A stretch of DNA of 64,000 bases from Clostridium sp. CAG:678 (GTDB lineage: Bacteria; Bacillota; Clostridia; Oscillospirales; Acutalibacteraceae), in the NCBI GenBank assembly GCA_000431535.1, contig HF991825.1, forward strand, positions 54,591-118,590, read 5' to 3'. Positions 37,748 to 52,997 of the stretch are shown here, in pieces. Below the pieces are notes generated by a model, which saw only the letters and a program-made list of their open reading frames with translations, made no database searches and was not told the DNA's origin. A program made the translations under genes and the position numbers. Positions within the stretch are counted from its first letter, which is position 1; every line of letters starts with the position of its first letter.

Positions 37748-37762
37748 TCCGGAGGTGTCGGA

Positions 37763-39184
37763 ATGAGCAGAGTCCTCGCGTTTGACCTCGGCGCGTCCAG
37801 CGGGCGCGCGGTGCTTGCCGAATACGTCGGAGAAAAGATCAAATATAAAGAGATACACAGATTTGAAAATATGCCCGTTTCCGAAAACGGCACGCTGCGC
37901 TGGGATTTTGATTATCTGATGCGGGAGATCAAAAAAGGCATAGATCTTGCCATAGATTTGGGCGGCGTAGATTCCATGGCGTTTGATACTTGGGGTGTGG
38001 ATTACGGTCTGCTGGATGACAGCGGTAAACTCATCTCGCAGCCGTTTCACTATCGGGATAAAAGAACGGAGCGTCTCCCCCAACAGATCTTTAAACAGAT
38101 GCCGCCGGAGGAACTGTATTCCGCTACCGGTATACAGATCATGCCGATCAACACGCTGTTTCAGCTTGCGGCGGAGAAACACAAAAATATATCGAAATTC
38201 CTGTTTATTCCGGATCTGATCGTTTATGAACTCTGCGGCGCGGTCAGCGCAGAGCAGACGATTGCCTCCACTTCTCAGATGCTGGATCCGAAAACGAAAA
38301 ACTGGAATCCCCAAGTGGTTTCTTTAACGGGTATGCCGCAGCATATTCTGCCGCCCGTTGTGAAAAGCGCAACCCCTGCCGGCGAATATAAAGGGATTCA
38401 GATCATTAAGGCGGCAGGGCATGATACGCAGTGCGCCGTGTGCGCCATGCCGAGCGCGCAGCAGGAAAGCGCCGCGTTTTTATCCTGCGGCACGTGGTCT
38501 TTGATCGGCTGTGAGTGCGATGCTCCCGTAATGACGAAAAAGAGCATGGAGGATGAACTATCCAATGAACTGGGCGCAAACGGCAAGATCAATTATCTAA
38601 AAAATATCAGCGGCCTTTGGCTGATCCAGCAGTTGAAAAAAGATTTTCAGGCGCAGGGCAAAACCTATTCTTATTCTGATATGGAAAACCTTGCCAAAGA
38701 ATCCAAACCGTTTTTGTGCTTTATAGATGCGGATGATCCGGCTTTTTCCCTGCCGGGCGGTATGCCGCATAAAATCATAAGCAGGTGCCGGGAAATGGGG
38801 CAGGCAGTGCCGCAAAGTGACGGGCAGATCATCAGAACGGTATATGAAAGCCTTGCCATGAAATACAGATTTGCCCTTTTGCAGATCGAGGATAACATTT
38901 CCCGCAGGTTGGAAAAACTTTATCTGCTCGGCGGCGGCTCCAAAGATCCGCTGCTTTGCAAAATGGCTGCCTGCAGCACGGGCATACCTGTTGCGGCAGG
39001 GCCTGCGGAGGCAACCGCCCTTGGCAATATTCTGCTTCAGCTGGTTGCCCTTGGCGATATAAACAATATTGAATCGGGCAGAAAAATCATCAGGCAAAGC
39101 GAAAAGATCAGCATTTATGAGCCTGAGAACACAGATCTTTGGGAAAAGCAATATAATAGGTATTTAAAATTATTAAATAAATAA
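37763..39184 (+). CDS. fucK: L-fuculokinase (rhamnulokinase-like FGGY kinase)
   Basis: A 473-residue FGGY-family sugar kinase. The phosphate motif FDLGASSGRAV and FDTWGVDYGLLD (catalytic Asp) are in the N-terminal half; the adenosine motif LLGGGSKDPLLCKMAA is in the C-terminal half. By sequence it is close to the rhamnulokinase branch, but its place between fucA and fucI argues for fuculose as substrate. Clostridial fucose operons commonly use this type. Confidence 0.85.
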   Translation: MSRVLAFDLGASSGRAVLAEYVGEKIKYKEIHRFENMPVSENGTLRWDFDYLMREIKKGIDLAIDLGGVDSMAFDTWGVDYGLLDDSGKLISQPFHYRDKRTERLPQQIFKQMPPEELYSATGIQIMPINTLFQLAAEKHKNISKFLFIPDLIVYELCGAVSAEQTIASTSQMLDPKTKNWNPQVVSLTGMPQHILPPVVKSATPAGEYKGIQIIKAAGHDTQCAVCAMPSAQQESAAFLSCGTWSLIGCECDAPVMTKKSMEDELSNELGANGKINYLKNISGLWLIQQLKKDFQAQGKTYSYSDMENLAKESKPFLCFIDADDPAFSLPGGMPHKIISRCREMGQAVPQSDGQIIRTVYESLAMKYRFALLQIEDNISRRLEKLYLLGGGSKDPLLCKMAACSTGIPVAAGPAEATALGNILLQLVALGDINNIESGRKIIRQSEKISIYEPENTDLWEKQYNRYLKLLNK

Positions 39185-39202
39185 TAAGAGAGGTAAAGAT
39201 TT

Positions 39203-40987
39203 ATGAATTATCCGAAAATAGGGATCCGCCCTGTAATTGACGGCAGATGGGGCGGTGTGCGTGAAAGCCTTGAAAAACAGACGATGGGCATGGCGCAGGC
39301 TGCCGCAAAACTGATTGAGGGCACACTCCGCTATCCAAACGGCGAGTCGGTGCAGTGCGTGATCAGCAGCACAACGATCGGCGGCGGCGCGGAGGCGGCG
39401 GCGTGCGCAAGGCAGTTTGAAACGCAGAATGTGGTTGCCACGCTTTCCGTAACGCCATGCTGGTGCTACGGCACGGAAACCTTTGATATGGATCCCAACA
39501 CGATCAAGGCAGTTTGGGGCTTTAACGGCACAGAGCGTCCCGGCGCGGTTTATCTTGCAGCCGTAATGGCAGCTTATGCGCAAAGGGGCATGCCCGCGTT
39601 CTCTATCTACGGCCATGATGTGCAGGATATTACCGATACAGAGATCCCTGCAGATGTTGCGGAAAAGATCCTGCGCTTTGCCAAGGCGGCAGTAACGGTT
39701 GGCTGGATGAAGAATAAGGCGTATGTGAATCTCGGCGGCGTTGCCATGGGCATAGCAGGCAGTTACTGCAACGCGGATATGTTTCAGAAATATCTGGGCA
39801 TTCGTGCCGAATGGGTGGATATGACGGAGATTCTGCGACGTATCACGCTGGAGATCTACGATCATGAGGAATATGAAAAGGCGATCCGCTGGGTAAAAGA
39901 AAACTGCAAGGAAGGCTTTGACCTGAATGCCGGCAAAGATCTGCCGGAGATCATTCGGCGCTCCAAAGTGGTAGACCCGGATAAGGACTGGGAGTTTATT
40001 ACAAAAATGACTCTTGTTGTGCGCGATATCCTAAACGGTAACACAAAACTGGATGAAATGGGCTGGCATGAAGAGGCGCTCGGTAAAAATGCCGTTGCCG
40101 CGGGTTTCCAGGGCCAGAGGAACTGGACTGACTGGCTCCCGAACGCTGATTTCACGGAATCCATCATGGCGTCCTCTTTTGACTGGAACGGCGCGAAGAT
40201 GCCCACCCCGTTTGCTACGGAAAACGATACGTTGAACGGCGTTGCTATGATGCTCGGTTCATTCATTGCAAACAGTGCGCCTTGTTTTCATGATGTCAGA
40301 ACCTACTGGAGCCCCGATGCGTGCGAAAGGGTAACGGGCGTCCGCCCGGACGGCCTTGCCGCAAACGGATTTATCCACCTGATCAATTCCGGCGCCACCG
40401 CGCTGGACGGCTGTGGCGCCTGCAAAAATGAAAAAGGCGAAAACTGCATGAAACCGTTTTGGAAGATCACAAATGAGGATATCAAAGCCTGCCTGAACGC
40501 TACGGACTGGTGCAGGGCAAATTATGAATACTTCCGCGGCGGCGGTTTCTCCAGCCACTTCAGGTGCAGAGCACAGATGCCGGTCACAATGCTCAGAGTC
40601 AATATTGTGGACGGAGTAGGCCCTGTGCTTCAGCTTGCGGAGGGATATACGGTGGATCTGCCGGATGAGATACATACGGTTATCGATAAAAGAACCGATC
40701 CGTCCTGGCCAACAACATGGTTTGTGCCGAATCTTACAGGTGAGGGCGCATTTAAAGATGTTTACAGCGTTATGGCAAACTGGGGCGCGAATCACGGCGT
40801 AACGGTATACGGCCATGTGGGCGCGGATCTGATCACGCTTGCCTCCATGCTCCGTATTCCTGTAAATATGCATAATGTGGATTCCTCACGCATTTTCCGC
40901 CCCCATTCTTGGAGCGGTTTCGGCACGCAGGATCTGCAGTCTGCGGATTACCGCGCCTGCGCCGCTTACGGCCCGTTGTATAAATGA
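39203..40987 (+). CDS. fucI: L-fucose isomerase
   Basis: A 594-residue Mn2+-dependent isomerase, the normal family length. Recognisable blocks are [18 protein letters not shown], the metal-site region [21 protein letters not shown] with SSFDWNG after it, and the C-terminal [20 protein letters not shown]. It converts fucose to fuculose, the first step of the pathway. Closed by a hairpin (41014-41040). Confidence 0.96.
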
Positions 40988-41013
40988 TCTGACTTTATCT
41001 TAGGTATAACAAA

Positions 41014-41040
41014 ACCGGAACTGCATTTCACAGTTCCGGT
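41014..41040 (+). terminator. Terminator hairpin of fucI, T-run missing
   Basis: ACCGGAACTG / CAGTTCCGGT with a seven-base loop and an A-run before the stem, but the bases after it are CACCATG instead of T residues. The 160-bp repeat copy starts two bases later. Confidence 0.6.
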
Positions 41041-41042
41041 CA

Positions 41043-41202
41043 CCATGCGCGGCAGGGCTTATCCCATGCCCCGTCAAACCAAAGTTCCACAACCTCGCCA
41101 TATCTGCCGTCCATGAGTTCGGTAGGCTGCGAGAAATCGAACTGAATTTCGTTTTTTTGCGAGTGGGCGCCGTACAACGGTACTGCCCCCGAGCAAAAAA
41201 CG
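41043..41202. repeat. 160-bp exact direct repeat, copy 2
   Basis: Base-for-base the same as 28374-28533. It encodes, on minus, the GH29 segment around the nucleophile WFDG, but is cut off on both sides. The flanks of the two copies do not match, so the edges are sharp (CCATGCGCGG at the left, AAAAAACG at the right). Confidence 0.95.
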
Positions 41203-41212
41203 GAAAGCGCAA

Positions 41213-41247
41213 TGCCGCATAAACAAAGTGCTTATGCGGCATTTTAT
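41213..41247 (+). terminator. Hairpin terminator downstream of the repeat copy
   Basis: ATGCCGCATAA / TTATGCGGCAT with a ten-base loop, followed by TTTATCATTTT. Confidence 0.65.
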
Positions 41248-41343
41248 CATTTTGCAGTCTTCGGTTTTGCTGATAAGACTTTATTCATCCGTTTGCTGTT
41301 TTTTCGTTGTCTGTATCTTCAAACGATATGTCGGCGCGGTTCA

Positions 41344-41365
41344 GCCGACTTTATCGACAGTCTGA
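41344..41365. repeat. Short intergenic repeat with TTTATCGACAGTCTGA core, copy 1
   Basis: A 22-base stretch starting GCCGACTTTATC that recurs with one difference at 55849-55870. Both copies directly follow (in minus reading) a stable inverted repeat at the 3' end of a minus-strand gene. Confidence 0.7.
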
Positions 41366-41380
41366 GCGGAATGAACTTGT

Positions 41381-42148
41381 TCATTCCGCTTTATATTCAA
41401 GAATCATAAATGCCAGGGTGGTTTTCAGCGCGTCAACACGGTTGATTTTCGCTTTGTCGCTTTCACTTGTGCGGTAAAAATACGGCGTCATGGAAAACAG
41501 CGTTTTCAGATCGTTTTGCGGTATGTTTACCGTGCGGCTGATCAGTTGCTTGCCGGCAAGTGTCAGTTCGCTGCCGCCCGGGTAACGCGTATCATTCTGA
41601 TATGGTTTTTCATATAATAGTTCTTTCAGTTCAAATAAGTGCTCAGGAGCGGGCACAACGCTGTAAAGCCTGCCGCCCGGTTTCAGCACGCGCGCGAATT
41701 CTTTGGCGTTAAACGGCGCAAAGAGATGCATGGCCGTATCAATGCTCCTGCTTTTTACGGGGATCGCTTTCAGATTGGCAACAAAGTAATGCCCGCCGTT
41801 TTTGCGTTTTGCCGCCAGGCGCACCATTTCCTTGCTTAGGTCAAATCCGTAAAGTTCGCCGCCGTAATCGTCGTAATACCCCTCGCCGCAGCATATATCC
41901 AGCACTGTGCCGCGTAACCATTGTGAAACCTCGTCTTTCAGAAAAGCAAAATACCCCTTTTCCAAAAAGGCATGCCGTGCGCGGGCAGATTCTTTGCTGT
42001 CTCCGGTTCTGTCTCCGCTTTTGCTGCCTGTCAGCAGGTTTACATATCCTTCTTTAGCAAGGTCAAAACTGTGCCCTTTTGCGCAGTAAAGGCGTTTTTC
42101 TCCGGCTTTCAGTTCACCGCCGCAGACCGGGCAGATCATGATTCCCAT
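41381..42148 (-). CDS. rlmA: 23S rRNA (guanine-N1)-methyltransferase, RlmA-like
   Basis: A 255-residue protein. A zinc ribbon at the N-terminus (CPVCGGELKAGEKRLYCAKGHSFD) precedes EGYVNLL, the hallmark of RlmA proteins, and a SAM domain (VLDICCGEGYY) and LFAPFNAKEFARVLKPGGRLY. It modifies G745 or G748 of 23S rRNA; in some bacteria this affects macrolide or tylosin response. ATG 42148 follows GAGGAAAA. Last gene of the nine-gene minus operon; an inverted repeat (41365-41390) overlaps its stop codon. Confidence 0.9.
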   Translation of the reverse strand: MGIMICPVCGGELKAGEKRLYCAKGHSFDLAKEGYVNLLTGSKSGDRTGDSKESARARHAFLEKGYFAFLKDEVSQWLRGTVLDICCGEGYYDDYGGELYGFDLSKEMVRLAAKRKNGGHYFVANLKAIPVKSRSIDTAMHLFAPFNAKEFARVLKPGGRLYSVVPAPEHLFELKELLYEKPYQNDTRYPGGSELTLAGKQLISRTVNIPQNDLKTLFSMTPYFYRTSESDKAKINRVDALKTTLAFMILEYKAE

Positions 42149-42700
42149 TTAGTTTTCCTCATACCGGGGCATATCCACCATTGTTGCCTCGTGGCGGACT
42201 GCCGGCAGAAAGGTATGCAGTATATCCGCTGTTTTGATCGCCAGGCTGGATGTGTTGATGCACGGATGGCAGCCTATGTATTCACCGCTTAAAATATCTT
42301 TGTCTATCACAAGGCGGACTCGGTTTTCTTTGTCATTCATCAGCCCTAAAACCGATACGGATCCGGGTGTGATATCCAGAAATTCCTGCATGAATTCCGG
42401 CTCTGCAAAAGAAAGGCGCGCGCAGCCAAGCTGCTTGGTGATATCTTTTGTTTTAAACGGTTTTGCGCCCGGCATCATCAGCAGGTAGAATTCCGTTTTC
42501 TGCCTGTTTCGCAAAAACAGGTTCTTACAGATCTCAACGCCCAATGTTTTTTCGATCTCCTCGCATGCCTCCATCGTCTGCGCAGCAGGGTGATCCACTC
42601 TTTTGTACCGGATCCCGAGTGCGTCCAGCAGATCGTATACCCGGGCTTCTTTTTCCTGCCTGCCGTTCAGATCAGCCGGCCTTCCGCTTTGTAATTCCAT
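42149..42700 (-). CDS. YbaK/ProX-type aminoacyl-tRNA deacylase
   Basis: A 183-residue protein of the YbaK/PrdX editing family: KRVDHPAAQTMEACEEIEKTLG, CKNLFLRNRQKTEFYLLMM, and GSVSVLGLMND. It resembles the prolyl-tRNA editing type that clears Ala from tRNA-Pro. It ends where rlmA begins and follows alr by 13 bases. Its presence next to an alanine racemase may help against misacylation by small amino acids (inference). Confidence 0.88.
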   Translation of the reverse strand: MELQSGRPADLNGRQEKEARVYDLLDALGIRYKRVDHPAAQTMEACEEIEKTLGVEICKNLFLRNRQKTEFYLLMMPGAKPFKTKDITKQLGCARLSFAEPEFMQEFLDITPGSVSVLGLMNDKENRVRLVIDKDILSGEYIGCHPCINTSSLAIKTADILHTFLPAVRHEATMVDMPRYEEN

Positions 42701-42713
42701 ATTTCAGCCTCTT

Positions 42714-43862
42714 TTAGTACATATAATTTGTGGAAAACATAAATTTTCCGTTCTTATAATAAGTGCGCGGCACCCTGCGGGAGATGCGGCAGGGCAGTTC
42801 ATAGTTAAAAGAATAGGCACTTTCGGAAACTTCTTCCATCGTCAGTTCCTTATCGCCGCTCTTTCCCACCAAAATGACTGTGTCGCCGATCTCAGCGTCA
42901 ATACCGGTAATATCCACCATAAACTGATCCATGCATACTCTGCCCACGATGGGTGCAAACTTTCCGCGGATCAGCACTTTTCCTTTGTTGGAAAGGCAGC
43001 GCGGGTAGCCGTCTGCGTAACCAACGGGAATGGTGGCGATCCGGCGTGTTTCTGTGGTGGTGTATGTGCCGCCGTAAGAGATCTCACGCCCCGGTTCCAG
43101 TTCTTTGATGTGGGAGATATGCGTGCGCCATTCCATAACAGGCGTGATGGGCAGCAGGTTTTTATCCACTTCGTGGGAGGGGTACAGTCCGTATAAAATA
43201 ATGCCCATGCGGCACATATCAAAATATTCGTCAAAATTCATAATGCCTGCGGAGTTGTTAATGTGTTTTATGGGAATGCTGATTCCGCGCGCCTCCAGCA
43301 ATTGGATAAAGGTTTTAAATTTTTCCCGCTGGGCAATGGCTTTGGAAAGGTCTTGTTCATCCGCCGTCGCAAAGTGAGAGAAAAGTCCCTCCGCAACGAT
43401 GCCGGGCAGTTTTGTGATCTTTTCGCAAATATCTGCGTCGCTTTCATTCACCTGAAAACCAATGCGGCTCATACCCGTGTCTACACAAAAGTGAAACGGT
43501 GTTTCTTTGCCCTGCTTTACAGATTCTTCGGAAAGTGCCTTTGCGTCTTCAAAGTGAAAAACGGGAATGCGGATATTATATGCAACCACATCTTTAAAAC
43601 AGGCGCGCGGCACAGTGCCTAAGATCAGCACCGGCGTTTGAATGCCTGCCTTTTTCAGCTCGATAGCCTCTTCTATGCAGGCAACGCCGTAAAAATCCGC
43701 CCTGCCGTCAAAAAGCCTTGCAAGGGGCACCGCTCCGTGGCCGTAAGCGTCTGCTTTAATCACGCAAAGCAGTTTTACGCCTTTTGGCAGTTTTGCCCGC
43801 GTCACTTCAAAATTGTGTTCTGCCGCGTCCAGATCTATCGCGGCATCTGTTCTGAAAAACAT
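42714..43862 (-). CDS. alr: Alanine racemase
   Basis: A 382-residue PLP enzyme. The PLP Lys is in LCVIKADAYGHGAVPLA (about residue 38) and the second catalytic base Tyr is in REISYGGTYTT (about 270). RMGIILYGLYPS and GRVCMDQFMVDIT are family blocks. It supplies D-Ala for peptidoglycan or, in this operon, takes part in D-amino acid turnover. GAGGTAA precedes the ATG; 11 bases after pxpA. Confidence 0.95.
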   Translation of the reverse strand: MFFRTDAAIDLDAAEHNFEVTRAKLPKGVKLLCVIKADAYGHGAVPLARLFDGRADFYGVACIEEAIELKKAGIQTPVLILGTVPRACFKDVVAYNIRIPVFHFEDAKALSEESVKQGKETPFHFCVDTGMSRIGFQVNESDADICEKITKLPGIVAEGLFSHFATADEQDLSKAIAQREKFKTFIQLLEARGISIPIKHINNSAGIMNFDEYFDMCRMGIILYGLYPSHEVDKNLLPITPVMEWRTHISHIKELEPGREISYGGTYTTTETRRIATIPVGYADGYPRCLSNKGKVLIRGKFAPIVGRVCMDQFMVDITGIDAEIGDTVILVGKSGDKELTMEEVSESAYSFNYELPCRISRRVPRTYYKNGKFMFSTNYMY

Positions 43863-43873
43863 GATCTGTTACC

Positions 43874-44626
43874 TCAAATTGCTTCTGCAATCGAAACGGT
43901 TTCTATGTTGTTTCGTTTAAAAGCTTCATTCAGTTTTTTTACAAATTCTATTGCTTTCGGCCCGTCACCGTGTACGCACACGGAGTGGGTTTCAATTTCA
44001 ATATCCTCGCCTGTGTATGCGGTAACCATATCGCATTTTGCCATGCGGATCACACGTTCCACAGCCTCGTTTTCATCCTCTATCATAGCGCCGTTCAATC
44101 CGCGCTGCCTGAGTGTGCCGTCTGCCTCATATGCCCGGTCCGCAAACACCTCGCTGGCATATCGTATTCCAGCCGTCTTTGCGGCTTTGATCATTTCAGA
44201 TCCGGAAAGCGCAAGCAAGATCAGATCTTTGTCGTAGTCATAAACGGCTTTTACGATCGCGTCTGCAACGGCTCTGCTTTTCGCGGCGGTGTTGTACAGC
44301 GCGCCGTGTGCCTTTACATGATCCAGCTTTACGCCTTTTGCATTTGCGATAGAGCCTATAGCGCCAAGCTGGTAAAGTGTAATGTTGTATACTTCCTGCG
44401 GGGAAAGATCCATTTTTGTTCTTCCGAAATTTTCCCTGTCCGGGTATCCGGGATGCGCGCCCGCGCCAACCCCGTATGTTTTGCAAAATTCCAGTGTTTC
44501 TGCCATCATTTGCGCACTGCCGGCATGAAAGCCGCAGGCAATGTTGGCGCTGTTGATATGGGGGATGATGATCTCATCCGCACCCGCGCCTTCGCCAAGG
44601 TCGCAGTTCAGGTTAATTTTAAACAA
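43874..44626 (-). CDS. pxpA: 5-oxoprolinase subunit A (LamB/YcsF family)
   Basis: A 250-residue protein with the unmistakable start INLNCDLGEG, then NIACGFHAGSAQMM, GAHPGYPDRENFGR and DHVKAHGALYN. PxpA works with PxpB and PxpC in ATP-dependent opening of 5-oxoproline to glutamate. The start is TTG 44626 behind GAGCGTGA. In this operon it is split from pxpBC by the DUF1445 gene. Confidence 0.95.
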   Translation of the reverse strand: MFKINLNCDLGEGAGADEIIIPHINSANIACGFHAGSAQMMAETLEFCKTYGVGAGAHPGYPDRENFGRTKMDLSPQEVYNITLYQLGAIGSIANAKGVKLDHVKAHGALYNTAAKSRAVADAIVKAVYDYDKDLILLALSGSEMIKAAKTAGIRYASEVFADRAYEADGTLRQRGLNGAMIEDENEAVERVIRMAKCDMVTAYTGEDIEIETHSVCVHGDGPKAIEFVKKLNEAFKRNNIETVSIAEAI

Positions 44627-44640
44627 AATATCACGCTCTT

Positions 44641-45426
44641 TCAGTATTTCAGGCTTGTGTTTTTTACGTCCGTTATAAACATGTGCCCCGGCGCATGGGT
44701 GATCGCCATCGGCGGTTTTGCGTTCATCACCGCGTTTTGCGGGGTTACGCCGCAGGGCCAGAACACGGGAACCTCGCCGTCGTTCACGGTAACGGCGTCG
44801 CCGTAATCCGGGCTGAAGATATCTTTGATTCCAATCTGTTCCGGGCTGCCGATGTGAATCGGGGCGCCGTGCACCCTTGGCATCGCCGCCGTTACGTTGA
44901 CCGCCTTAACCACAAGGTCATACGGTATCGGGCGCATGGATACCACCATGTTTCCGCCGAATATTCCTGCTGGTTTCAGCGGGATATTGGTGTTGAACAT
45001 CGGTACGTTTCTGCCTTCTTCTATGTGGCGGACGGGGATCCCCGCCTCGATTAATTCCGCCTCAAAAGAAAAGGAGCAGCCGATCAGAAAATAAACGAAG
45101 TCGTCCTGCCACAGATCTGAAATATCATGCGCTTCTTCCGTAAGCACGCCGTTTTTCCAGATCCTGTATTTCGGAAAGTCCGTTGCAACATCGGCGTTTT
45201 CCGCCATTTCCCGGATCTGCCGGGAGCCTGCGTTGCCCACTTCAAGCAGGGGGCAGGGGCGCGGGTTCCTTGTGCAAAACAGTAAAAAATCAAATGCCAG
45301 ATCCTTGGGCAGTATGCAAAGATTTGCCTGTGCATACCCGGCGCACATGCCGCTGGTTTGGCCGGTGATCTTCTGCGCTCTGATCAGATTTCTTATTTCT
45401 TTTGGATTTGCTGATGAATAGTCCAT
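44641..45426 (-). CDS. DUF1445 / putative hydro-lyase (D-glutamate cyclase N-domain family)
   Basis: A 261-residue protein of the DUF1445 (YcsI) family. Markers are SGMCAGYAQANLCILP near the start, FLIGCSFSFEAELIEAGIPVRH, MVVSMRPIPYDLV and FWPCGVTPQNAVMNAKPPMAITHAPGHMFITD at the C-terminus. In mammals this family forms the N-terminal part of DGLUCY, a D-glutamate cyclase. The matching C-terminal family is also in this operon (47097-48158). Start ATG follows AAAGGGG. Confidence 0.9.
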   Translation of the reverse strand: MDYSSANPKEIRNLIRAQKITGQTSGMCAGYAQANLCILPKDLAFDFLLFCTRNPRPCPLLEVGNAGSRQIREMAENADVATDFPKYRIWKNGVLTEEAHDISDLWQDDFVYFLIGCSFSFEAELIEAGIPVRHIEEGRNVPMFNTNIPLKPAGIFGGNMVVSMRPIPYDLVVKAVNVTAAMPRVHGAPIHIGSPEQIGIKDIFSPDYGDAVTVNDGEVPVFWPCGVTPQNAVMNAKPPMAITHAPGHMFITDVKNTSLKY

Positions 45427-45437
45427 GTTTTCCCCTT

Positions 45438-46379
45438 TTAAAGTTTATGGATGTACGCCTGCAATGATGCAAGTTCACTGCGCTGCGTTTTTGCCGCTGC
45501 CTGCGCTTCTTTTACGGAAACTTTTTTGAACCGCACTGTGCAGCCGGGCAGTAACTGCGCCGCAAGCGGCAGATCTGCGGAGATCACGCAGGCGATCTTG
45601 GCGTAACCGCCGGTCGTCTGTCTGTCCGCGCAAAGAAGGATCGGCTGCCCGTTTTCCGGCACTTGAATGCTGCCGGGCGCAATGCCGTCGGAAATGATGT
45701 TCATGCCGTGCCTGCCTTTCAGCACAGCGCCATTCAGGCGGATGCCCATTCTGTCTGCCTCGGCTGTTACCTTGTATGCAGCGGAAAAGAAACGTTCTGT
45801 ATCCTCAGCCGTAAACATAAAGTCCTGCGGTCCGGGCACAGCTCTTAAAACCGTTTCTTGGCTGTACGAAAACGCTTTTGTTTCCCGCTTTTCAATGTGA
45901 TTCAGTTTGCTGTGCGGCAGTATGCCGATCTCGTCCCCGGTTTTCAGCTTTCTGCCATGGAATCCGCCGGCTTTTGCTTTCAGATCCGTTGAGCGGCTGC
46001 CCAGAAAAACAGGCACGTCAATGCCGCCGCTCACTGCAAGATACGCCCTTGCGCCGTTTTTCACATTGCCGCAGATCAGCACATCGCCTGCGGAAAGTGC
46101 ATAAACCTTATTCATCCGAATCGGCTTTCTGTTTACGGCAGCCTCTATCTGTGCGCCGCTTATGCATATGGCGCAGTCTTCTGTAAACACAGCGGCTATG
46201 CCGCTGAGCGTCATTTCCAGCACCGCGGCATTTTGCGTGTTGGAAAGCAGTATGTTTGCTGTTTTCACCGCGCGCGCGTCCATTGCGCCGCACTGTGAAA
46301 AACCATATTTCATATATCCGTATCGGCCAAGATCCTGCACAGTCGTAAGGATCCCGCCGCGCACGATCTTAATTCCCAC
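45438..46379 (-). CDS. pxpC: 5-oxoprolinase subunit C (KipA / biotin-dependent carboxyltransferase-like)
   Basis: A 313-residue protein. GGILTTVQDLGRYGYMKYGFSQCGAMD is the family start; later LAVSGGIDVPVFLGSRSTD and PGPQDFMF, then DGIAPGSIQVPENGQPILLCADRQTTGGYAKIA. The GTG start at 46379 (behind TACGGAGGTG) is used instead of the longer ORF from 46520, which runs antisense-like through pxpB. It overlaps the end of pxpB by 11 bases. Confidence 0.94.
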   Translation of the reverse strand: MGIKIVRGGILTTVQDLGRYGYMKYGFSQCGAMDARAVKTANILLSNTQNAAVLEMTLSGIAAVFTEDCAICISGAQIEAAVNRKPIRMNKVYALSAGDVLICGNVKNGARAYLAVSGGIDVPVFLGSRSTDLKAKAGGFHGRKLKTGDEIGILPHSKLNHIEKRETKAFSYSQETVLRAVPGPQDFMFTAEDTERFFSAAYKVTAEADRMGIRLNGAVLKGRHGMNIISDGIAPGSIQVPENGQPILLCADRQTTGGYAKIACVISADLPLAAQLLPGCTVRFKKVSVKEAQAAAKTQRSELASLQAYIHKL

Positions 46380-47100
46380 GGCGCACCTCCGTACATTCGG
46401 CAGTGTATTCGCCTTTTTCACATGCGTTGTCGATGCGCATGAATTCCTCTTCTGTGATGCGGAAAAATCGGATCCGGTCTCCCGCGCGGTACAGGATCGG
46501 TTCTTCTTTTCTGTCGTCATATACCCTTACGGGCGTTTTGCCGATCAGCCGCCAGCCGCCCGGTGAGTCAGAGGGATAAATGCCGGTTTGATCGCCGCCG
46601 ATGCCCACGCTGCCGCGCGGTATTTTTACCCTCGGCGTTTCCAGACGTGCAACGGCAATGCGTTTATCCATATTGCCAAGATACGCGAAACCGGGCAGAA
46701 ACCCAAGCATATAGATCGGGTAATCGCGCCCCGTGTGTATTTTTATGATCTCTTCTTTGGAAAGGCCGGTCATGTTTTCCACGCTTTGCATATCCGGCGC
46801 AAATTCGCCCTCATAGCAGACCGGTATCTTATAAAGCATGGGCATGAAATTCCCAATGCCGGACCGGTGCTTTTGCGCCTGTTTCAGGGCTTTAATCAGA
46901 TCCTTGCTGCCGGTTTGGCACGGGTCATACAGCACCGTAACGCTGCAAAAAGCGGGTATGTATTCCGTTACGCCTTTAATTTTCGCGTTTTGTGCCGCCG
47001 CCGTAAACGCGGTTACTTCTGCGTTTATCTTCTCGCTGATCTCATTCCCGAAATTTACGGTAATACCACCGTCACCGCTGGGCAGAAATTTTGCTCTCAT
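46369..47100 (-). CDS. pxpB: 5-oxoprolinase subunit B (KipI-like)
   Basis: A 243-residue protein with the KipI/PxpB layout: FLPSGDGGITVNFG at the start, VTVLYDP, then the conserved YPIYMLGFLPGFAYLGNMDKRIAVARLETPR and GSVGIGGDQTGIYPSDSPGGWRLIGKTP. ATG 47100 overlaps the stop of the preceding DUF4392 gene (ATGA), so translation is coupled. It forms the catalytic complex with PxpA and PxpC. Confidence 0.95.
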   Translation of the reverse strand: MRAKFLPSGDGGITVNFGNEISEKINAEVTAFTAAAQNAKIKGVTEYIPAFCSVTVLYDPCQTGSKDLIKALKQAQKHRSGIGNFMPMLYKIPVCYEGEFAPDMQSVENMTGLSKEEIIKIHTGRDYPIYMLGFLPGFAYLGNMDKRIAVARLETPRVKIPRGSVGIGGDQTGIYPSDSPGGWRLIGKTPVRVYDDRKEEPILYRAGDRIRFFRITEEEFMRIDNACEKGEYTAECTEVRRGN

Positions 47101-48158
47101 CGTGTGAAATATCCTTTTTCCAGTGTGTGGGTAAACCATTCCTGTGTTTTGTCCTCCACCGTGGCGGGGTATTCAATCAGCGCCCGCATCATGGCAACAA
47201 GCGGCAGGTTTATATTTTTTCCGATTCCGTCAATATACGGGCGCGGTTTGCCGTACATATCCAGCATGCCGGCAGCGGCAGCAGCGTCCATCGCGGCGGA
47301 TTGCTCCTCCGTGTCATGAAACAGTTCCGGCTTTTTCAGCAGAAATGCAGTTGCCGCCATCAGTGCGTTGCAGCCCCAGTCCGAAACCGTTGCGGTAATA
47401 ATATTATCCGCAACCGTATCTGCCAGAATACCGAATCCGCTGCCTGCCTTGCAGCCGCCCATTTCGGCGTACGGCACATATTTTCGTATATGATCTTCTA
47501 TTGCCGCCATGCCGATCTCGTTTCCGAGATCACCGATGGAAAGATTATAGATCCCCGCATCCTTGCACATTTTAAACAATACGTCATATTTTGCCTCCAC
47601 ACCGGTGGTGTTCACGCCGACGGCGTTGTGGTAAAAGCCGTTTTTGTTGCGCCCCGGCGCCTCAATGCTGATTGCGGCGCACGGCTTGCCGTGGGATAAA
47701 ATCTCTTTTGCCTGAACCGGCGCTTCGTCGCGCTCTTTTGTAAATATAATATAGGTAACAGTGTTTTCACTTTTGTCATCTATATCATCCGTAACAGCAA
47801 AATCAAGCACGTTGGAAATGGCTTTAATCGCTTTTTCACACTGGCTTGGGATCAGCATAACCGGTTTTGCGCCAAACGCTTTCATAATAAATTTCGCAAA
47901 CAGGCAGCTGGATATGATCCCGTCCGTTTCCGCCTCGTTCCAGGGCAGCAAAACAAAACCGGTAAAGATAAATACTTTTTTGCCCTTTTTGATATGCTTA
48001 ATCAGCCCTTTTGCGCCGTTTGTTGAAAGCGGTTCGCCCGTAAATTTACGCGCACCGTCGTAAAGAATACGGCAAACGCCGTATCCTCTGGGGTCAAGAT
48101 TCATCAGTGTGTCCAGATTGCAGCCCACATTAAAAATGGTAAGTTCCTCTTTTGTCAT
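47097..48158 (-). CDS. DUF4392 family protein (D-glutamate cyclase C-domain family)
   Basis: A 353-residue protein of the DUF4392 family. Visible blocks are FIFTGFVLLPWNEAETDGIISS, AISIEAPGRNKNGFYHNAVG, SIGDLGNEIGMA and the Gly/Ala-rich GGCKAGSGFGILADTVADNIITATVSDWG. In vertebrate DGLUCY this domain is the C-terminal half of a D-glutamate cyclase that forms 5-oxo-D-proline. AAGAGG precedes the ATG. Here both halves are separate genes in one operon with 5-oxoprolinase. Confidence 0.87.
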   Translation of the reverse strand: MTKEELTIFNVGCNLDTLMNLDPRGYGVCRILYDGARKFTGEPLSTNGAKGLIKHIKKGKKVFIFTGFVLLPWNEAETDGIISSCLFAKFIMKAFGAKPVMLIPSQCEKAIKAISNVLDFAVTDDIDDKSENTVTYIIFTKERDEAPVQAKEILSHGKPCAAISIEAPGRNKNGFYHNAVGVNTTGVEAKYDVLFKMCKDAGIYNLSIGDLGNEIGMAAIEDHIRKYVPYAEMGGCKAGSGFGILADTVADNIITATVSDWGCNALMAATAFLLKKPELFHDTEEQSAAMDAAAAAGMLDMYGKPRPYIDGIGKNINLPLVAMMRALIEYPATVEDKTQEWFTHTLEKGYFTR

Positions 48159-48191
48159 AGCAAACCTCTTAAAATTGTAATGAAAATCGCG

Positions 48192-49037
48192 TCAGTCCGC
48201 CCTGCACTGTTTTTCAAAATCGGCAACCAGCGCGTCCTGAATCTTTTTGAGCATTTCGGGTGCTTTGCCGCCAACAGGTTTTCCGTCCACGGTCTTTACG
48301 GGTATGCAGAATGAACCGGTGGAATGCACAACGATCTCGTCAGCATTCATCAGTTCATCCAGCGTGTAATCGCGTTCTTCGGTTTCAAAACCAAGTTTTT
48401 CTGCAAACGCAAGCAGCCGCAAACGCGCGGTGCCGGGCAGCACTTTATCGTCCAGCTGATGTGTGATCACTTTGCCGTCTTTAAATATGGAAACGTTGGA
48501 ATGCGCGCATTCCGTAACGATATCGCCGCGGTGGAAGATTGCCTCGTCACATCCTGCTCTGTCCGCAGCCGTTGCCGCAAGGCAGGAGGGAATCAGATTC
48601 AGCGTTTTCGCATTGCAGTATAAAAAGCGTTTGTCCTCATATGTAATCACGTCTATCGGCTTGTATGTGTCCGCAACGGGGCAGGGGGTCAGTGTGATCC
48701 ACAGGTTGGATTGCATATTTTCCTCATAAATGTGCTTTCTAAGTCCGCTGCCGCGTGTTACCTGCATATAAACGAACTGGTCGCCGTCATCCACTTTCGG
48801 CACAAGTTCATGCAGCAGCTTTGCCAGATCTTCCTTTTCAATCGGCATATTGATATCCAGTATTTTTGCGCTTCTGTAAAACCGGTCCAGATGTGCCTGC
48901 AGGTCAAAGATTTTATGGTTATGTGCGTAAGTTGCGTCATATATACCGTCTCCAAACCAGCACACGCGGTCCAGCATCGGTATCTTCATTTCTTCAATCA
49001 GTCCGTATTCGCCGTTATAATAGCCAAGATTTTTCAT
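48192..49037 (-). CDS. dat: D-amino acid aminotransferase (class IV PLP aminotransferase)
   Basis: A 281-residue fold-type IV aminotransferase: LDRVCWFGDGIYDATY, VYMQVTRGSGLR, the PLP Lys in YCNAKTLNLIPS, DEAIFHRGDIVTECAHSNVSIF and GTARLRLLAFAEKLG. The pattern is D-alanine aminotransferase rather than the branched-chain type. It moves an amino group between D-Ala and 2-oxoglutarate, giving D-Glu. MKNLGYY (49037) behind AAGGAGT is the start. First gene of the operon. Confidence 0.88.
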   Translation of the reverse strand: MKNLGYYNGEYGLIEEMKIPMLDRVCWFGDGIYDATYAHNHKIFDLQAHLDRFYRSAKILDINMPIEKEDLAKLLHELVPKVDDGDQFVYMQVTRGSGLRKHIYEENMQSNLWITLTPCPVADTYKPIDVITYEDKRFLYCNAKTLNLIPSCLAATAADRAGCDEAIFHRGDIVTECAHSNVSIFKDGKVITHQLDDKVLPGTARLRLLAFAEKLGFETEERDYTLDELMNADEIVVHSTGSFCIPVKTVDGKPVGGKAPEMLKKIQDALVADFEKQCRAD

Positions 49038-49237
49038 GTCAGCACTCCTTGCCAAAAAATATTTGTTATTAAAAAAGGGCATACGTTGCCTTGATCAGCG
49101 CCGTTGCCCACCAAACCTTATTCTAATACAAAACTTTCTAAAAGTAAATATAAAATTTATTTTTTATATAAATTCTTTAATACAAATTTTACTGTTTTAA
49201 ATTAAACTTGAATCAGGAGTGTTTTAATACATGATTT

Positions 49238-49270
49238 ATTGTAATAAGATTGTAAGAAGTAAATTGTATA
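49238..49270 (+). promoter_or_regulatory. Direct repeats upstream of the ABC remnant
   Basis: ATTGTAA at 49238-49244 and 49249-49255 (11-base step), and ATTGTATA at 49263-49270. Direct repeats with one-helical-turn spacing are typical OmpR-type response regulator sites, and a regulator of that family is (in broken form) just downstream. Confidence 0.5.
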
Positions 49271-49304
49271 CTAAAATCACAAAACAGATTTGGAGGTTTT
49301 AGTT

Positions 49305-49475
49305 ATGGCGATATTTGAAACAAAGGATTTACGAAAGATATACGGCAGCGGAGAAAATGAAGTCCACGCTTTGGACGGTGTATCTATTTCTGTGGACGAG
49401 GGCGAATTTGTCGCTGTGGTCGGCACTTCCGGCAGTGGAATGGAATTTTGTAAAAAAGATCAGGGAAACGGCTGA
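49305..49475 (+). pseudogene. ABC transporter ATP-binding protein, N-terminal remnant
   Basis: A good ribosome binding site (GGAGG) and ATG are followed by ~44 residues of a BceA/LolD-type ATPase, [20 protein letters not shown] onward, up to Walker A VVGTSGSG. There the match stops, and the next bases belong to a response regulator. The frame then ends after [11 protein letters not shown]. The rest of the ATPase and any permease are missing. Confidence 0.85.
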
Positions 49476-49926
49476 AACCCCGGTACTGTTTTTGACCGCC
49501 AATGATACGGAGCAGAATATGCTGGAGGGCTTCGGCGTTGGCTGTGACGACTATATTCCCAAGCCCTTTTCGATTGAAGCCTTGCGTAAGAAGGTGCAGG
49601 CGGTTTTAAAGCGGACAATCAACGATACTGCACGAATACGGTATAAGAATTTGGAAGTTGATACGGATAAATGTCTTGTTCTGCTGAACGGAGAAAAAGT
49701 ACACCTTACCTCGACGGAGTACAAACTGCTCTGCTGTTTAATAGAGAACAAAGGCAGGATCGTAACGAAAGCCATGCTTTTGGAACAGCTTTGGGATATA
49801 GACGGTAATTTTGTTGATGAAAATACCATTCGTGTAAACATTAAGCGGCTGCGGCAGAAGTTAAAAGATGAAAAGCAGGAATATATTGTGACCGTATTTG
49901 GTATGGGCTATACCTTTGGAGAATGA
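49439..49926 (+). pseudogene. Response regulator (OmpR family), N-terminally truncated
   Basis: The remaining sequence reads from about the middle of the receiver domain, [16 protein letters not shown], through VGCDDYIPKPFSIEAL, to a complete winged-helix domain (LTSTEYKLLCCLIENKG; ENTIRVNIKRLRQKL; TVFGMGYTFGE). The first ~50 residues with the phospho-Asp are gone. The five codons before KKIRE fit better in the ABC frame (MEFCKK), so a one-base shift in the run of six A residues (49452-49457) also separates the frames. No start codon of its own is convincing. Confidence 0.85.
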
Positions 49927-49928
49927 CG

Positions 49929-50954
49929 ATGATGCATTTTGGAGTTTATCGAAAACTGATTTTGATTGCAGATACTGTCATAGCGGCGGTATCGATTGGC
50001 GCTGTGTTTTTTATGGAAAACACTTCTGCCCTTATGCTTTTTGTCATTTGTGCCTTTGGGATTTTATGCGGCTTATTGTTTTTGTTCGACTTCCTGCATA
50101 ACCGCTATCATGATGATTTGTTGCAGCAGATCACGCTGCTGATCGAGGCTTTGGTGGAGCAGCAGGAACGGATTGTTTTTCCTGAAAACGAGGACACGCT
50201 GACTGCCCGCCTGCAACATCAACTTTTGAAGCTCCGCAACATTTTAACAGCGCAGAATCAAATGCTGGCACAGGAAAAGGAGCAGATCAAGACACTGATT
50301 TCCGATATTTCCCACCAAATCAAAACGCCTGTGGCGGCGGCAAATACCTTTGCACAGTTACTTGATGATAAAGAATTGTCCGATGAGGAACGCGGCGAAT
50401 ACATTGCCACTTTGCAGACTTCTCTTGAAAAACTGACCTTTTTGACAAACAGCCTGATTAAAATGTCCCGTTTGGAAAGCGGCATGATCAGCCTGAAGCT
50501 CGAAAAGAACAACTTAAATGATATTATTCTGCAAGCAGTAAAAACCGTCTATGCAAAGGCAAAAGAGAAAAACATAACGATTACCTTTGACTGCGTGCAG
50601 AACTTTGAAGCGGTGCTTGATTTCAACTGGACAGCAGAAGCCATTGCGAATATCCTCGACAACGCTGTGAAATACACGCCGAACGGTGGGATTGTCGGAT
50701 TAGAGATCACAGAATATCCGTCCTATCTGCGGCTGGATATATCCGATAACGGGATCGGGATTCCCGAAGAAGAACAGGCGAAGATTTTTGAACGCTTTTA
50801 CAGGGGAAAATACTCTGCCGGTATTGACGGTGTGGGAATCGGGCTGTATTTAACCCGTGATATTATTCAAAAACAGCATGGTTATATAAAAGTGCGGTCT
50901 GATAAAAACGGCAGTTCTTTTTCCGTGTTTGTAAGAAAAAACGCAGCGGATTAA
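49929..50954 (+). CDS. Sensor histidine kinase
   Basis: A 341-residue kinase. Two N-terminal membrane helices (LILIADTVIAAVSIGAVFF; LMLFVICAFGILCGLLFLF), a coiled linker, a DHp helix with the phospho-His in ISDISHQIKTPVAAANTF, and an ATPase domain with ILDNAVKYTPNGG, ISDNGIGIPEEEQ and GVGIGLYLTRDII. All catalytic motifs are intact, unlike those of its partner regulator. Start 49929 has GGAG at seven bases; ATG 49923 is an alternative overlapping the regulator's stop. Confidence 0.9.
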   Translation: MMHFGVYRKLILIADTVIAAVSIGAVFFMENTSALMLFVICAFGILCGLLFLFDFLHNRYHDDLLQQITLLIEALVEQQERIVFPENEDTLTARLQHQLLKLRNILTAQNQMLAQEKEQIKTLISDISHQIKTPVAAANTFAQLLDDKELSDEERGEYIATLQTSLEKLTFLTNSLIKMSRLESGMISLKLEKNNLNDIILQAVKTVYAKAKEKNITITFDCVQNFEAVLDFNWTAEAIANILDNAVKYTPNGGIVGLEITEYPSYLRLDISDNGIGIPEEEQAKIFERFYRGKYSAGIDGVGIGLYLTRDIIQKQHGYIKVRSDKNGSSFSVFVRKNAAD

Positions 50955-50987
50955 AATATCCGCCGCGTTAAGATACGCTTTATTCTT

Positions 50988-51743
50988 TTACAGGTCTGCC
51001 TCAAGTAAAACGGGGCAGTGGTCAGAGCCATATATATCTGTCAGTATATCGGCGTTTTTCAGTTTGCTGTTCAGCCGGGCGGATGTTATAAAATAGTCGA
51101 TGCGCCAGCCGGCATTCTTCTCCCTTGCCTTAAACATATAACTCCACCAACTGTAGATGCCTTCGCGGTCCGGATAAAAATACCGGAATGTATCCGTAAA
51201 TCCATTCTGCAGAATATTTGTCATTTTTGCTCTTTCCGCATCGGAAAAGCCTGCGTTATTATGATTCGTTTTCGGGTTTTTCAGATCAATCTCCTCGTGC
51301 GCAACATTCAGATCTCCGCAAAAAACAACGGGTTTCTTTTGGTCCAGCGCTTTAATATAACCGAAAAAGTCGTCTTCCCATTTCATCCTGTAGTCAAGGC
51401 GCGCCAGTTCGCGCTGTGAATTCGGCACATACACCGTTAAAAAATAAAAATTATCAAACTCCAGCGTAATGAGCCTGCCCTCATGGTCATGCTCATCGAT
51501 CCCCATGCCATAGTTCACTTTTAACGGTTTTTTCTTCGTAAAAACTGCCGTTCCAGAATAACCTTTCTTTTCGGCATAGTTCCAGAATGCATAATAACCA
51601 TCCGGCGCAAAATCAATTTGCCCCTCCTGCAGTTTGGTTTCCTGTATGCAGAAGATATCCGCGTCTGCTTTTTTAAAAAAATCTTCGAATCCTTTATTCA
51701 TACAGGCTCTCAAGCCGTTTACGTTCCAGCTGATCAGTTTCAT
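50988..51743 (-). CDS. xth: Exodeoxyribonuclease III
   Basis: A 251-residue AP endonuclease/3'-exonuclease. KLISWNVNGLRA, IFCIQETKLQ (catalytic Glu), VFCGDLNVAHEEIDLKNPK, YSWWSY and GSDHCPVLLEADL cover all the family motifs. The product repairs abasic sites. It has its own AGGAG ribosome binding site and no operon partner. Confidence 0.96.
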   Translation of the reverse strand: MKLISWNVNGLRACMNKGFEDFFKKADADIFCIQETKLQEGQIDFAPDGYYAFWNYAEKKGYSGTAVFTKKKPLKVNYGMGIDEHDHEGRLITLEFDNFYFLTVYVPNSQRELARLDYRMKWEDDFFGYIKALDQKKPVVFCGDLNVAHEEIDLKNPKTNHNNAGFSDAERAKMTNILQNGFTDTFRYFYPDREGIYSWWSYMFKAREKNAGWRIDYFITSARLNSKLKNADILTDIYGSDHCPVLLEADL

Positions 51744-51839
51744 ATATTCTAAACTCCTGTTTGTGTTGTTTGTGCTGTTTTTAAAATAACATATTTTTTA
51801 AACGCGCGCAATATGCCCGCATTAAATTTTATAAAATGC

Positions 51840-51867
51840 TTGACTTTATCCAAATTTGTGGTAAAAT
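51840..51867 (+). promoter_or_regulatory. tRNA-Val promoter
   Basis: TTGACT (51840-51845), 16-base spacer, TAAAAT (51862-51867), 12 bases before the tRNA. Confidence 0.6.
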
Positions 51868-51879
51868 AAATAGCACTGA

Positions 51880-51955
51880 GGGAGTATAGCTCAGCTGGGA
51901 GAGCATCTGCCTTACAAGCAGAGGGTCACAGGTTCGAGCCCTGTTACTCCCACCA
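51880..51955 (+). tRNA. tRNA-Val (anticodon TAC)
   Basis: 76 bases including encoded CCA. Acceptor stem GGGAGTA / TACTCCC, anticodon stem TCTGC / GCAGA around CTTACAA, T arm ACAGG-TTCGAGC-CCTGT. All stems pair. Confidence 0.97.
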
Positions 51956-51959
51956 GATT

Positions 51960-51996
51960 ATCCTGTCGGCTTTTGCCGGCGGGATTTTGTTTTTGT
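51960..51996 (+). terminator. Terminator after tRNA-Val
   Basis: An 11-base stem ATCCTGTCGGC / GCCGGCGGGAT (two G-T pairs) with a TTTT loop and a TTTGTTTTT tail. Confidence 0.85.
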
Positions 51997-52187
51997 CATA
52001 TTTTGCTATATTTTTTCAATATAATTGTATTTTGTAAAAATATAAGTGTTGAAATTTTATTTAAAGTATGGTATTCTTTTAGCATACAGTTGTTTTTAGC
52101 CGTTGAATATGCTATTTGAAAAATAGTTATTCTTTCAGAAAACAACGGTTTGTTTTAATTAAATATTTTTTAAGAGAGTGATACATT

Positions 52188-52988: not shown

Positions 52989-52997
52989 GGAGAAGTT

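What the first reader, a model, noticed from the sequence alone, without database searches (positions are those of the whole stretch)
41381..49037. Operon that puts both halves of a D-glutamate cyclase with 5-oxoprolinase and D-amino acid enzymes
Nine minus-strand genes run with gaps of 0-33 bases or overlaps: D-amino acid aminotransferase, DUF4392, pxpB, pxpC, DUF1445, pxpA, alanine racemase, tRNA deacylase, rlmA. DUF1445 and DUF4392 are the families fused in vertebrate DGLUCY, which turns D-glutamate into 5-oxo-D-proline (established for that protein). Here they are separate genes woven between the 5-oxoprolinase subunits. The inferred path is D-Ala + 2-oxoglutarate to D-Glu (Dat), D-Glu to 5-oxoproline (DUF1445/DUF4392), then Pxp to glutamate. 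The chirality step is the open question, as PxpABC is known for the L-form; alr or a further racemase activity may close the gap. It could be a detox or peptidoglycan salvage route not described as a unit.
Basis: partly seen in the sequence, partly recalled or inferred. Interest (0 to 1): 0.75.

Follow-up and report, generated by a model that had tools for sequence, protein, structure and literature searches.

The report
D-glutamate salvage operon in gut Clostridia
A set of seven bacterial genes that recurs side by side in Clostridia probably turns D-glutamate, the mirror-image amino acid of cell walls, into 5-oxoproline and then into ordinary glutamate, and it offers a handle on what two poorly understood protein families, fused in the vertebrate D-glutamate cyclase, actually do.

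Summary
Nine genes run on the minus strand from 49037 to 41381. Seven (dat, DUF4392, pxpB, pxpC, DUF1445, pxpA, alr) form a module that recurs across Clostridia; ybaK and rlmA stand beside it in 3 and 2 of 80 related loci. In two whole-genome draws 9 of 10 and 31 of 42 DUF4392 genomes have DUF1445, and 17 of 18 and 63 of 64 DUF1445 genomes have PxpB. dat stands in 8 of 11 pxp operons with adjacent DUF4392 and in 0 of 25 without; the NRAMP-family transporter of other pxp operons in 0 of 11 and 16 of 25. The set seems to have been assembled more than once. DUF4392 keeps the six metal-binding acidic residues of TON_0340. Most likely Dat gathers amino groups as D-Glu, DUF4392 closes it to 5-oxo-D-proline, and PxpABC spends ATP to make L-Glu. 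The inversion step is unassigned; I propose DUF1445, with three invariant cysteines. No activity was tested. MurI is present, so Dat is not needed for cell-wall D-Glu. A new variant built from known families; I found no description of it as a unit in the papers searched.

The parts
48192..49037 (-). dat: D-amino acid aminotransferase-like, fold-type IV PLP enzyme
   Evidence: Aminotran_4 5.8e-45 (with the longer start at 49082); best PDB hits are D-amino acid aminotransferase 1daa and its variants; Y33, R100, H102, K144, E176 at >=97% in 71 rows. Below the TIGR01121 cut-off (215.1 vs 277.45).
47097..48158 (-). DUF4392 / GLUCM-like_C, long type; proposed Mn-dependent D-glutamate cyclase
   Evidence: PF14336 298.9 bits; homologue of TON_0340, 4fc5/4dwz, E 6e-17; six metal ligands E77 D79 E166 D210 E214 D310, each >=97% in 80 rows.
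46369..47139 (-). pxpB, 5-oxoprolinase subunit
   Evidence: CT_C_D; TIGR00370 194.3 bits over cut-off 145.55
45438..46520 (-). pxpC, 5-oxoprolinase subunit (true start probably about 140 bases downstream of the longest-ORF start; inference)
   Evidence: CT_A_B; TIGR00724 313.5 over cut-off 230.2, NF045499 291 under its cut-off 500
44641..45426 (-). DUF1445 / PF07286; proposed 5-oxoproline-handling enzyme, candidate for the inversion step
   Evidence: 235.4 bits; NF003969 422.2 over cut-off 324; solved homologues 2pif, 3db9; C58, C117, C225 in 65 of 65 rows of the tree set.
43874..44626 (-). pxpA, 5-oxoprolinase subunit (TTG start)
   Evidence: LamB_YcsF; NF003814 312.1 over cut-off 226
42714..43862 (-). 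alr, alanine racemase
   Evidence: TIGR00492 371.6 bits over cut-off 168; in the run in 42 of 80 related loci
42149..42700 (-). tRNA_edit-domain (YbaK-like) protein; local neighbour, not part of the conserved module
   Evidence: PF04073; far under the YbaK equivalog cut-off; in 3 of 80 loci
41381..42148 (-). RlmA-like 23S rRNA methyltransferase; local neighbour, not part of the conserved module
   Evidence: Zn_ribbon_RlmA; under the NF008300 cut-off (188 vs 303); in 2 of 80 loci
49120..49148 (-). promoter-like site ahead of dat
   Evidence: consensus match only, 9 of 12
41013..41041 (-). terminator-like hairpin, 13 pairs, after rlmA
   Evidence: consensus match only

Best explanation
A seven-gene module that moves D-amino-acid nitrogen one way into L-glutamate. 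(1) Dat passes amino groups of D-Ala and other D-amino acids to 2-oxoglutarate, giving D-Glu; Alr links this to the alanine pool (inferred). (2) DUF4392, a dinuclear Mn-type enzyme, closes D-Glu to 5-oxo-D-proline (inferred from vertebrate DGLUCY, where the fused protein was assayed, from the conserved metal site, and from the tie to dat). (3) The ring is inverted to 5-oxo-L-proline; DUF1445 is the best candidate (hypothesis), unless PxpABC accepts the D form. (4) PxpABC opens it to L-Glu with ATP (known for the family), which makes the route irreversible. The 5-oxoproline is made inside the cell, which would explain why the NRAMP-family transporter of many other pxp operons is missing. Shown here: anatomy, conservation, recurrent assembly, the tie of dat to DUF4392. 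Inferred: all substrates.
For: Module conserved in Clostridia in two main gene orders. DUF4392 with DUF1445: 9 of 10 genomes in a class draw of 245 and 31 of 42 in a phylum draw of 398; with PxpB 9 of 10 and 34 of 42; DUF1445 with PxpB 17 of 18 and 63 of 64. dat in 8 of 11 pxp operons with adjacent DUF4392 and 0 of 25 without; NRAMP 0 of 11 and 16 of 25. All 70 scan loci with dat in the run have PxpB in the genome: 67 beside it, 3 elsewhere. Recurrent assembly: DUF1445 of 42 tree rows from these operons is one clade (SH-aLRT 98), but their PxpABC falls in separate places, one beside an NRAMP-type operon (100; AU test against one clade p = 4e-6, run after the tree was seen), and two deeply separate DUF4392 types serve the same operon. 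Metal ligands conserved. An NRAMP-family PxpT is needed for 5-oxo-L-proline growth in C. glutamicum (PMC13274462, abstract and passages).
Against: No activity was measured. Both domains were in the one protein that was assayed (PMC5339696, passages), so which one cyclises is unknown. TON_0340, a DUF4392 protein, was reported as a weak Mn-dependent phosphatase. DUF4392 paralogues also sit among sugar genes. 3 of the 11 pxp + DUF4392 operons have no dat (L020, L197, L198). The missing transporter is not peculiar to this module: 9 of 25 pxp operons without DUF4392 also lack NRAMP. Excretion of 5-oxo-D-proline by people (reported in PMC5339696) speaks against an efficient 5-oxoproline racemase in the vertebrate fusion. 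MurI is present and could itself interconvert D- and L-Glu. alr is in only 42 of 80 runs.
Confidence: 0.55

Rival explanations
1. The route runs the other way: the operon clears 5-oxoproline of both hands. PxpABC takes the L form; DUF4392/DUF1445 open 5-oxo-D-proline to D-Glu; Dat moves its nitrogen to pyruvate, giving D-Ala, and Alr makes L-Ala. The chirality gap is then closed by Dat plus Alr.
For: Dat and Alr are reversible (recalled); alr is in 42 of 80 runs; Na+:alanine symporter-like genes lie within 1 kb of the module in 2 of 80 scan loci and 1 of 20 drawn loci; it needs no new racemase.
Against: Opening the lactam without ATP is uphill (recalled); no NRAMP-family transporter was found in these operons, though other importers could be encoded elsewhere.
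Confidence: 0.2
2. DUF4392 and DUF1445 act on another small molecule (a phosphorylated or damaged metabolite near 5-oxoproline), and the D-Glu activity is particular to the vertebrate fusion.
For: Weak Mn-dependent phosphatase activity of TON_0340 (PMC5132392, first two of four parts read); DUF4392 paralogues beside GH4, FGGY kinase and PmbA/TldD genes; 11 of 42 phylum DUF4392 genomes lack DUF1445.
Against: Within pxp operons DUF4392 comes with dat, whose product or substrate D-Glu is the assayed substrate of DGLUCY.
Confidence: 0.17
3. Ordinary cell-wall supply: Dat and Alr make D-Glu and D-Ala for peptidoglycan, and the pxp genes are chance neighbours.
For: Dat and Alr have such roles in other bacteria (recalled).
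Against: MurI and a second Alr-like gene are present; the linkage recurs in many genomes and several gene orders.
Confidence: 0.05

Closest known systems
Vertebrate D-glutamate cyclase (DGLUCY, mouse 9030617O03Rik)
   Same: DUF1445 and DUF4392 both present; DUF1445 directly ahead of DUF4392 in 8 pair loci of the phylum draw (L153, L154, L156, L161, L164, L166, L169, L171), the same order as in the fused protein
   Different: Two separate genes in an operon with 5-oxoprolinase, dat and alr; in the window DUF4392 comes first and pxpB and pxpC lie between them; people are reported to excrete the D product
Bacterial pxpABC operons (B. subtilis pxpA/ycsG/ycsI/kipI/kipA; C. glutamicum pxpTABC)
   Same: PxpA, PxpB, PxpC and, in some, DUF1445 (YcsI in B. 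subtilis, recalled; one search finds PF07286 in B. subtilis)
   Different: No NRAMP-family transporter; instead dat, DUF4392 and often alr
TON_0340 (Thermococcus DUF4392, PDB 4FC5, 5GL4)
   Same: All six acidic metal ligands
   Different: Single protein reported as a weak Mn-dependent phosphatase; no D-Glu assay in the half of the text that I read
Split GLUCM_HUMAN homologues in gut bacteria (PMC11580864, table passage)
   Same: Lists 6 split and 0 full-length homologues of the human enzyme in gut bacteria
   Different: A table entry; in the passages seen no operon, dat or 5-oxoprolinase link is drawn

Membership tests
D-glutamate cyclase (DGLUCY type) | DUF1445 and DUF4392 domains | tested here: met
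   PF07286 235.4 bits, PF14336 298.9 bits
D-glutamate cyclase (DGLUCY type) | both domains in one polypeptide | tested here: not met
   separate ORFs 47097-48158 and 44641-45426
D-glutamate cyclase (DGLUCY type) | conversion of D-Glu to 5-oxo-D-proline | not testable with these tools
   needs an enzyme assay
DUF4392 metalloenzyme (TON_0340) | six acidic metal ligands | tested here: met
   E59 D61 E115 D157 E161 D246 align to E77 D79 E166 D210 E214 D310
PxpABC 5-oxoprolinase | three subunits PxpA, PxpB, PxpC together | tested here: met
   PxpB and PxpA over NCBIfam cut-offs
PxpABC 5-oxoprolinase | PxpC equivalog NF045499 (cut-off 500) | tested here: inconclusive
   291 bits, under cut-off; PxpC of three NRAMP-type operons (L180, L176, L186) score 226-277 and also fail, so the cut-off does not separate
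pxp operon with 5-oxoproline transporter | NRAMP-family transporter (PxpT/YcsG type) in the operon | tested here: not met
   none in window 36001-54000 or in the 80 scan loci; present in 16 of 25 class pxp operons without adjacent DUF4392
D-amino acid aminotransferase (Dat) | equivalog TIGR01121 | tested here: not met
   215.1 bits, cut-off 277.45
D-amino acid aminotransferase (Dat) | carboxylate-binding Arg and His and PLP lysine of the Bacillus enzyme (roles recalled) | tested here: met
   aligned with 1daa; R100, H102, K144 at >=97% of 71 rows
Cofactor-free two-cysteine amino acid racemases (analogy for DUF1445) | two catalytic cysteines facing each other across the pocket | not testable with these tools
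   C58, C117, C225 invariant, but no structure could be modelled or measured

The most novel reading that the evidence does not exclude
DUF1445 is a cofactor-free 5-oxoproline racemase that uses a pair of its three invariant cysteines, and DUF4392 is the Mn-dependent D-glutamate lactam-forming enzyme. With PxpABC they form an ATP-driven D-to-L glutamate inverter; Dat makes it a general outlet for D-amino-acid nitrogen. Context for DUF1445 acting on 5-oxoproline: it occurs almost only with PxpB (63 of 64; 17 of 18), it also sits in pxp operons with the NRAMP transporter and no DUF4392 (5 of 16 such operons), and related PxpABC serve both kinds of operon, so no D-specific Pxp lineage is needed.
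Probability: 0.25. Interest if true: 0.8.

Novelty: new variant of a known kind. Interest (0 to 1): 0.62.

Why it matters
D-Glu is an abundant cell-wall amino acid. A conserved bacterial operon that joins both halves of the vertebrate D-glutamate cyclase to 5-oxoprolinase would give these families a bacterial pathway context, allow the two halves to be assayed apart, and make the function of DUF1445, which stands beside 5-oxoprolinase in many bacteria, directly testable. The contrast of transporter versus dat/DUF4392 predicts which pxp operons feed on outside 5-oxoproline and which on 5-oxoproline made within.

Tried and rejected
Viral contigs gave no DUF4392 relative. Plasmid DUF4392 homologues (62 records; 29-32% identity in the 15 rows listed) show no pxp, dat or DUF1445 among the annotated features of the three that I opened (that annotation is incomplete). 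A D-specific PxpABC clade was considered and rejected: PxpABC of the module is not one clade. NCBIfam cut-offs did not separate transporter-type from module-type Pxp. Independent-pair tests on the Pxp tree found only 3 pairs that differ in DUF4392; dat went with it in 2 and did not differ in 1, NRAMP went the other way in 2.3 of 3 on average. That is too few for significance, so the Fisher tests, which ignore kinship, overstate the independence of the rows. Dropped before counts: L159 and L199 (contig cut or gene broken, no pxpB in view), L218 (a PF02682 match inside a 1217-aa ORF, urea-carboxylase-like, not a pxp operon). The DUF1445 tallies include fragmentary matches in G280, G294 and G416. 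Chance neighbourhood and cell-wall supply were rejected on conservation and on the presence of MurI. Papers: no paper in the held library holds both '5-oxoprolinase' and 'DUF1445'; the listings (not all hits are listed) showed no title or abstract start that describes the unit; Niehaus 2017, the paper most likely to list neighbours, is not held.
Full report
What is there. Nine minus-strand genes fill 49037-41381. Pfam and NCBIfam name them dat-like aminotransferase, DUF4392, PxpB, PxpC, DUF1445, PxpA, alanine racemase, a tRNA_edit-domain protein and an RlmA-like methyltransferase. Gaps are 0-33 bases or overlaps. A promoter-like site precedes dat and a hairpin follows rlmA, both consensus matches only. 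Upstream, on the other strand, lies a two-component locus; downstream, convergent, lie fucose-pathway genes. One transcript is likely but not shown.

How far it is conserved. A scan of one genome for each of 84,980 species, with two peptide patterns taken from the long-type DUF4392 alignment, found 220 relatives, of which the best 80 were kept. Beside DUF4392, in one run on the same strand, stand pxpB in 74 of 80, dat 70, pxpC 69, DUF1445 64, pxpA 59, alr 42, ybaK 3, rlmA 2. Several contigs end inside the run, so these are minimum figures. Clustering all other ORFs near DUF4392 gave no further family of comparable frequency: next came an ABC-ATPase-like cluster (by eye) in 22 loci at varied places and an Lrp/AsnC-like cluster in 13 (Pfam for Lrp); an Lrp-like gene lies within 1 kb of the module in 13 of 80. 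The core is therefore seven genes. Two main orders occur: dat-DUF4392-pxpB-pxpC-DUF1445-pxpA-(alr), as in the window, and, in Clostridium, dat-DUF4392-DUF1445-pxpA-(alr)-pxpB-pxpC.

Whole-genome association. In 245 genomes of the class, 10 have DUF4392 over its cut-off, 18 DUF1445, 30 PxpB; 9 of the 10 have DUF1445 (0.7 expected, p = 6e-11) and 9 of 10 have PxpB; 17 of 18 DUF1445 genomes have PxpB. In 398 genomes of the phylum the figures are 42, 64 and 121; 31 of 42 DUF4392 genomes have DUF1445 (6.8 expected, p = 2e-19), 34 of 42 have PxpB, 63 of 64 DUF1445 genomes have PxpB. In 17 of these 31 the two lie within 8 kb. The p values ignore kinship, and PF02682 also matches urea-carboxylase-like proteins. 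DUF1445 is thus almost wholly tied to genomes with 5-oxoprolinase, while DUF4392 also has a life elsewhere: 11 of 42 lack DUF1445, and some sit beside sugar genes.

What dat goes with. I read all 31 class PxpB places (the window is one) and 23 of the 41 other phylum DUF4392 genomes at their DUF4392; by the coordinates none of the 18 unread ones has PxpB near DUF4392 on the same contig. With adjacent DUF4392 there are 11 pxp operons: five in the class (window, L013, L017, L020, L021) and six in the phylum (L155, L157, L158, L168, L197, L198). Of these 8 have dat (missing in L020, L197, L198) and none has an NRAMP-family gene. Without adjacent DUF4392 there are 25 class pxp operons: none has dat or alr, and 16 have NRAMP (Pfam for NRAMP). 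Fisher p = 5e-6 for dat and 6e-4 for NRAMP; class alone 2e-4 (4 of 5 vs 0 of 25) and 0.014. Nine of the 25 have neither DUF4392 nor NRAMP, five of them (L213-L217) from one family, so the transporter is not a universal alternative. Three further phylum pxp loci in genomes whose DUF4392 lies elsewhere (L200-L202) have neither dat nor NRAMP. No NRAMP gene was found in the 80 scan loci. In C. glutamicum the NRAMP-family PxpT is required for growth on 5-oxo-L-proline, and the authors link it to YcsG (PMC13274462, abstract and passages); others call YcsG a Mn importer (PMC10448178, passages). My reading: operons with the transporter take up 5-oxoproline, and operons with dat and DUF4392 make it inside.

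Exceptions that help. Three scan loci have dat and DUF4392 but no pxp beside them (L072, L090, L094); all three genomes have PxpB elsewhere, in L090's genome next to an NRAMP gene. Three others have long-type DUF4392 with neither dat nor DUF1445 in the run (L101, L109, L116; L116 lies near a contig end), and no PxpB was found in their genomes. So all 70 scan loci with dat in the run have PxpB in the genome, 67 beside it and 3 elsewhere.

More than one assembly. In a tree of 65 DUF1445 rows (a chosen part of the loci) the rows of dat-type operons form one clade of 42, SH-aLRT 98, with L155 and L020 outside it. Concatenated PxpABC (53 rows) tells another story: ten Clostridium-type operons group with L188, an operon with NRAMP and no dat (support 100), apart from the other dat operons. 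Holding all 43 DUF4392-bearing PxpABC together is rejected (AU p = 4e-6; the 38 long-type ones p = 2e-4, run after the tree was seen). The DUF4392 tree parts a long and a short type (100), and short-type members serve operons (L157, L158, L168) whose DUF1445 and Pxp belong with the long-type ones. These are quick trees, with long branches in two of them. Repeated joining of the same functions from different lineages is good evidence of a shared pathway.

Mechanism. The mouse protein with DUF1445 and DUF4392 makes 5-oxo-D-proline from D-Glu (PMC5339696, abstract and passages). DUF4392 has a solved two-Mn site (PMC5132392, parts 1 and 2 of 4), and its six acidic residues align exactly to E77, D79, E166, D210, E214, D310 of the window protein, each at 97% or more in 80 rows. 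A dinuclear metal site suits lactam formation or opening (inference). Dat keeps the Bacillus residues that bind the substrate carboxylate (roles recalled), though it misses the equivalog cut-off. PxpABC is known for 5-oxo-L-proline; I found nothing on the D form in the passages read. DUF1445 is my candidate: it goes with Pxp with or without DUF4392, and it has three cysteines, C58, C117 and C225, in 65 of 65 rows, also visible in the two solved homologues. Two-cysteine racemases are a recalled analogy, not a test. Against it: 5-oxo-D-proline is reported as excreted by people, whose DGLUCY contains this domain. The alternative, D-Glu to D-Ala to L-Ala by Dat and Alr, would close the gap without any new activity but runs the cyclase uphill. 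MurI is present in the genome and could also interconvert the two forms.

Novelty. Each family is known; DUF1445 with pxpABC is known from B. subtilis; a table in PMC11580864 lists six split homologues of the human cyclase in gut bacteria (passage). In the searches of the held library (seen as listings) I found no description of dat, DUF4392, DUF1445, pxpABC and alr as one unit. The central Niehaus paper was not available. I class it as a new variant of a known kind.

Noticed in passing
window 49290-49926 (+): An ORF begins like an ABC-transporter ATPase (by eye; no Pfam hit, 61 aa), breaks off after its P-loop start, and the next frame is a response regulator whose receiver domain is matched only from profile position 60 on. 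It looks like a deletion or assembly join; blastn found no counterpart in the loci L042, L071 and L043.
   Followed up: partly
window 47097-48158, residues around C236; 80 DUF4392 rows: Long-type DUF4392 carries an insert with a CxCxC motif in 55 of 80 rows; the window's own clade lacks it but keeps the first cysteine, C236. Role unknown.
   Followed up: partly
L160, L165, L172: DUF4392 paralogues without DUF1445 beside them lie next to FGGY kinase and a sodium:solute symporter (L160), GH4 glycosidase and PmbA/TldD (L165), or peptidase U32 and Amdase-like genes (L172), so the family probably has further functions.
   Followed up: partly
L123 1444-2520 (-), own genome contig C37: A second alanine-racemase-like gene (TIGR00492 170.3 bits, cut-off 168) next to an ORF that looks FemAB-like by eye; it may supply the cell wall and leave the operon's alr free for catabolism.
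   Followed up: partly
L066, L076, L085, L090, L094, L158, L168: An Lrp/AsnC regulator lies near many of these operons, and in some Clostridium loci accB/accC or a Na+:alanine symporter-like gene.
   Followed up: partly
L213-L217: Tight pxpA-pxpB-pxpC operons of one family with low scores to the window's subunits and without transporter, DUF1445, DUF4392 or dat.
   Followed up: no
L118 8550-9422 (-): In this locus dat lies next to the operon but on the other strand, convergent with pxpA.
   Followed up: no
window 37034-40987 (+): Class II aldolase, FGGY kinase and L-fucose isomerase form a fucose-use cluster convergent with the operon.
   Followed up: no
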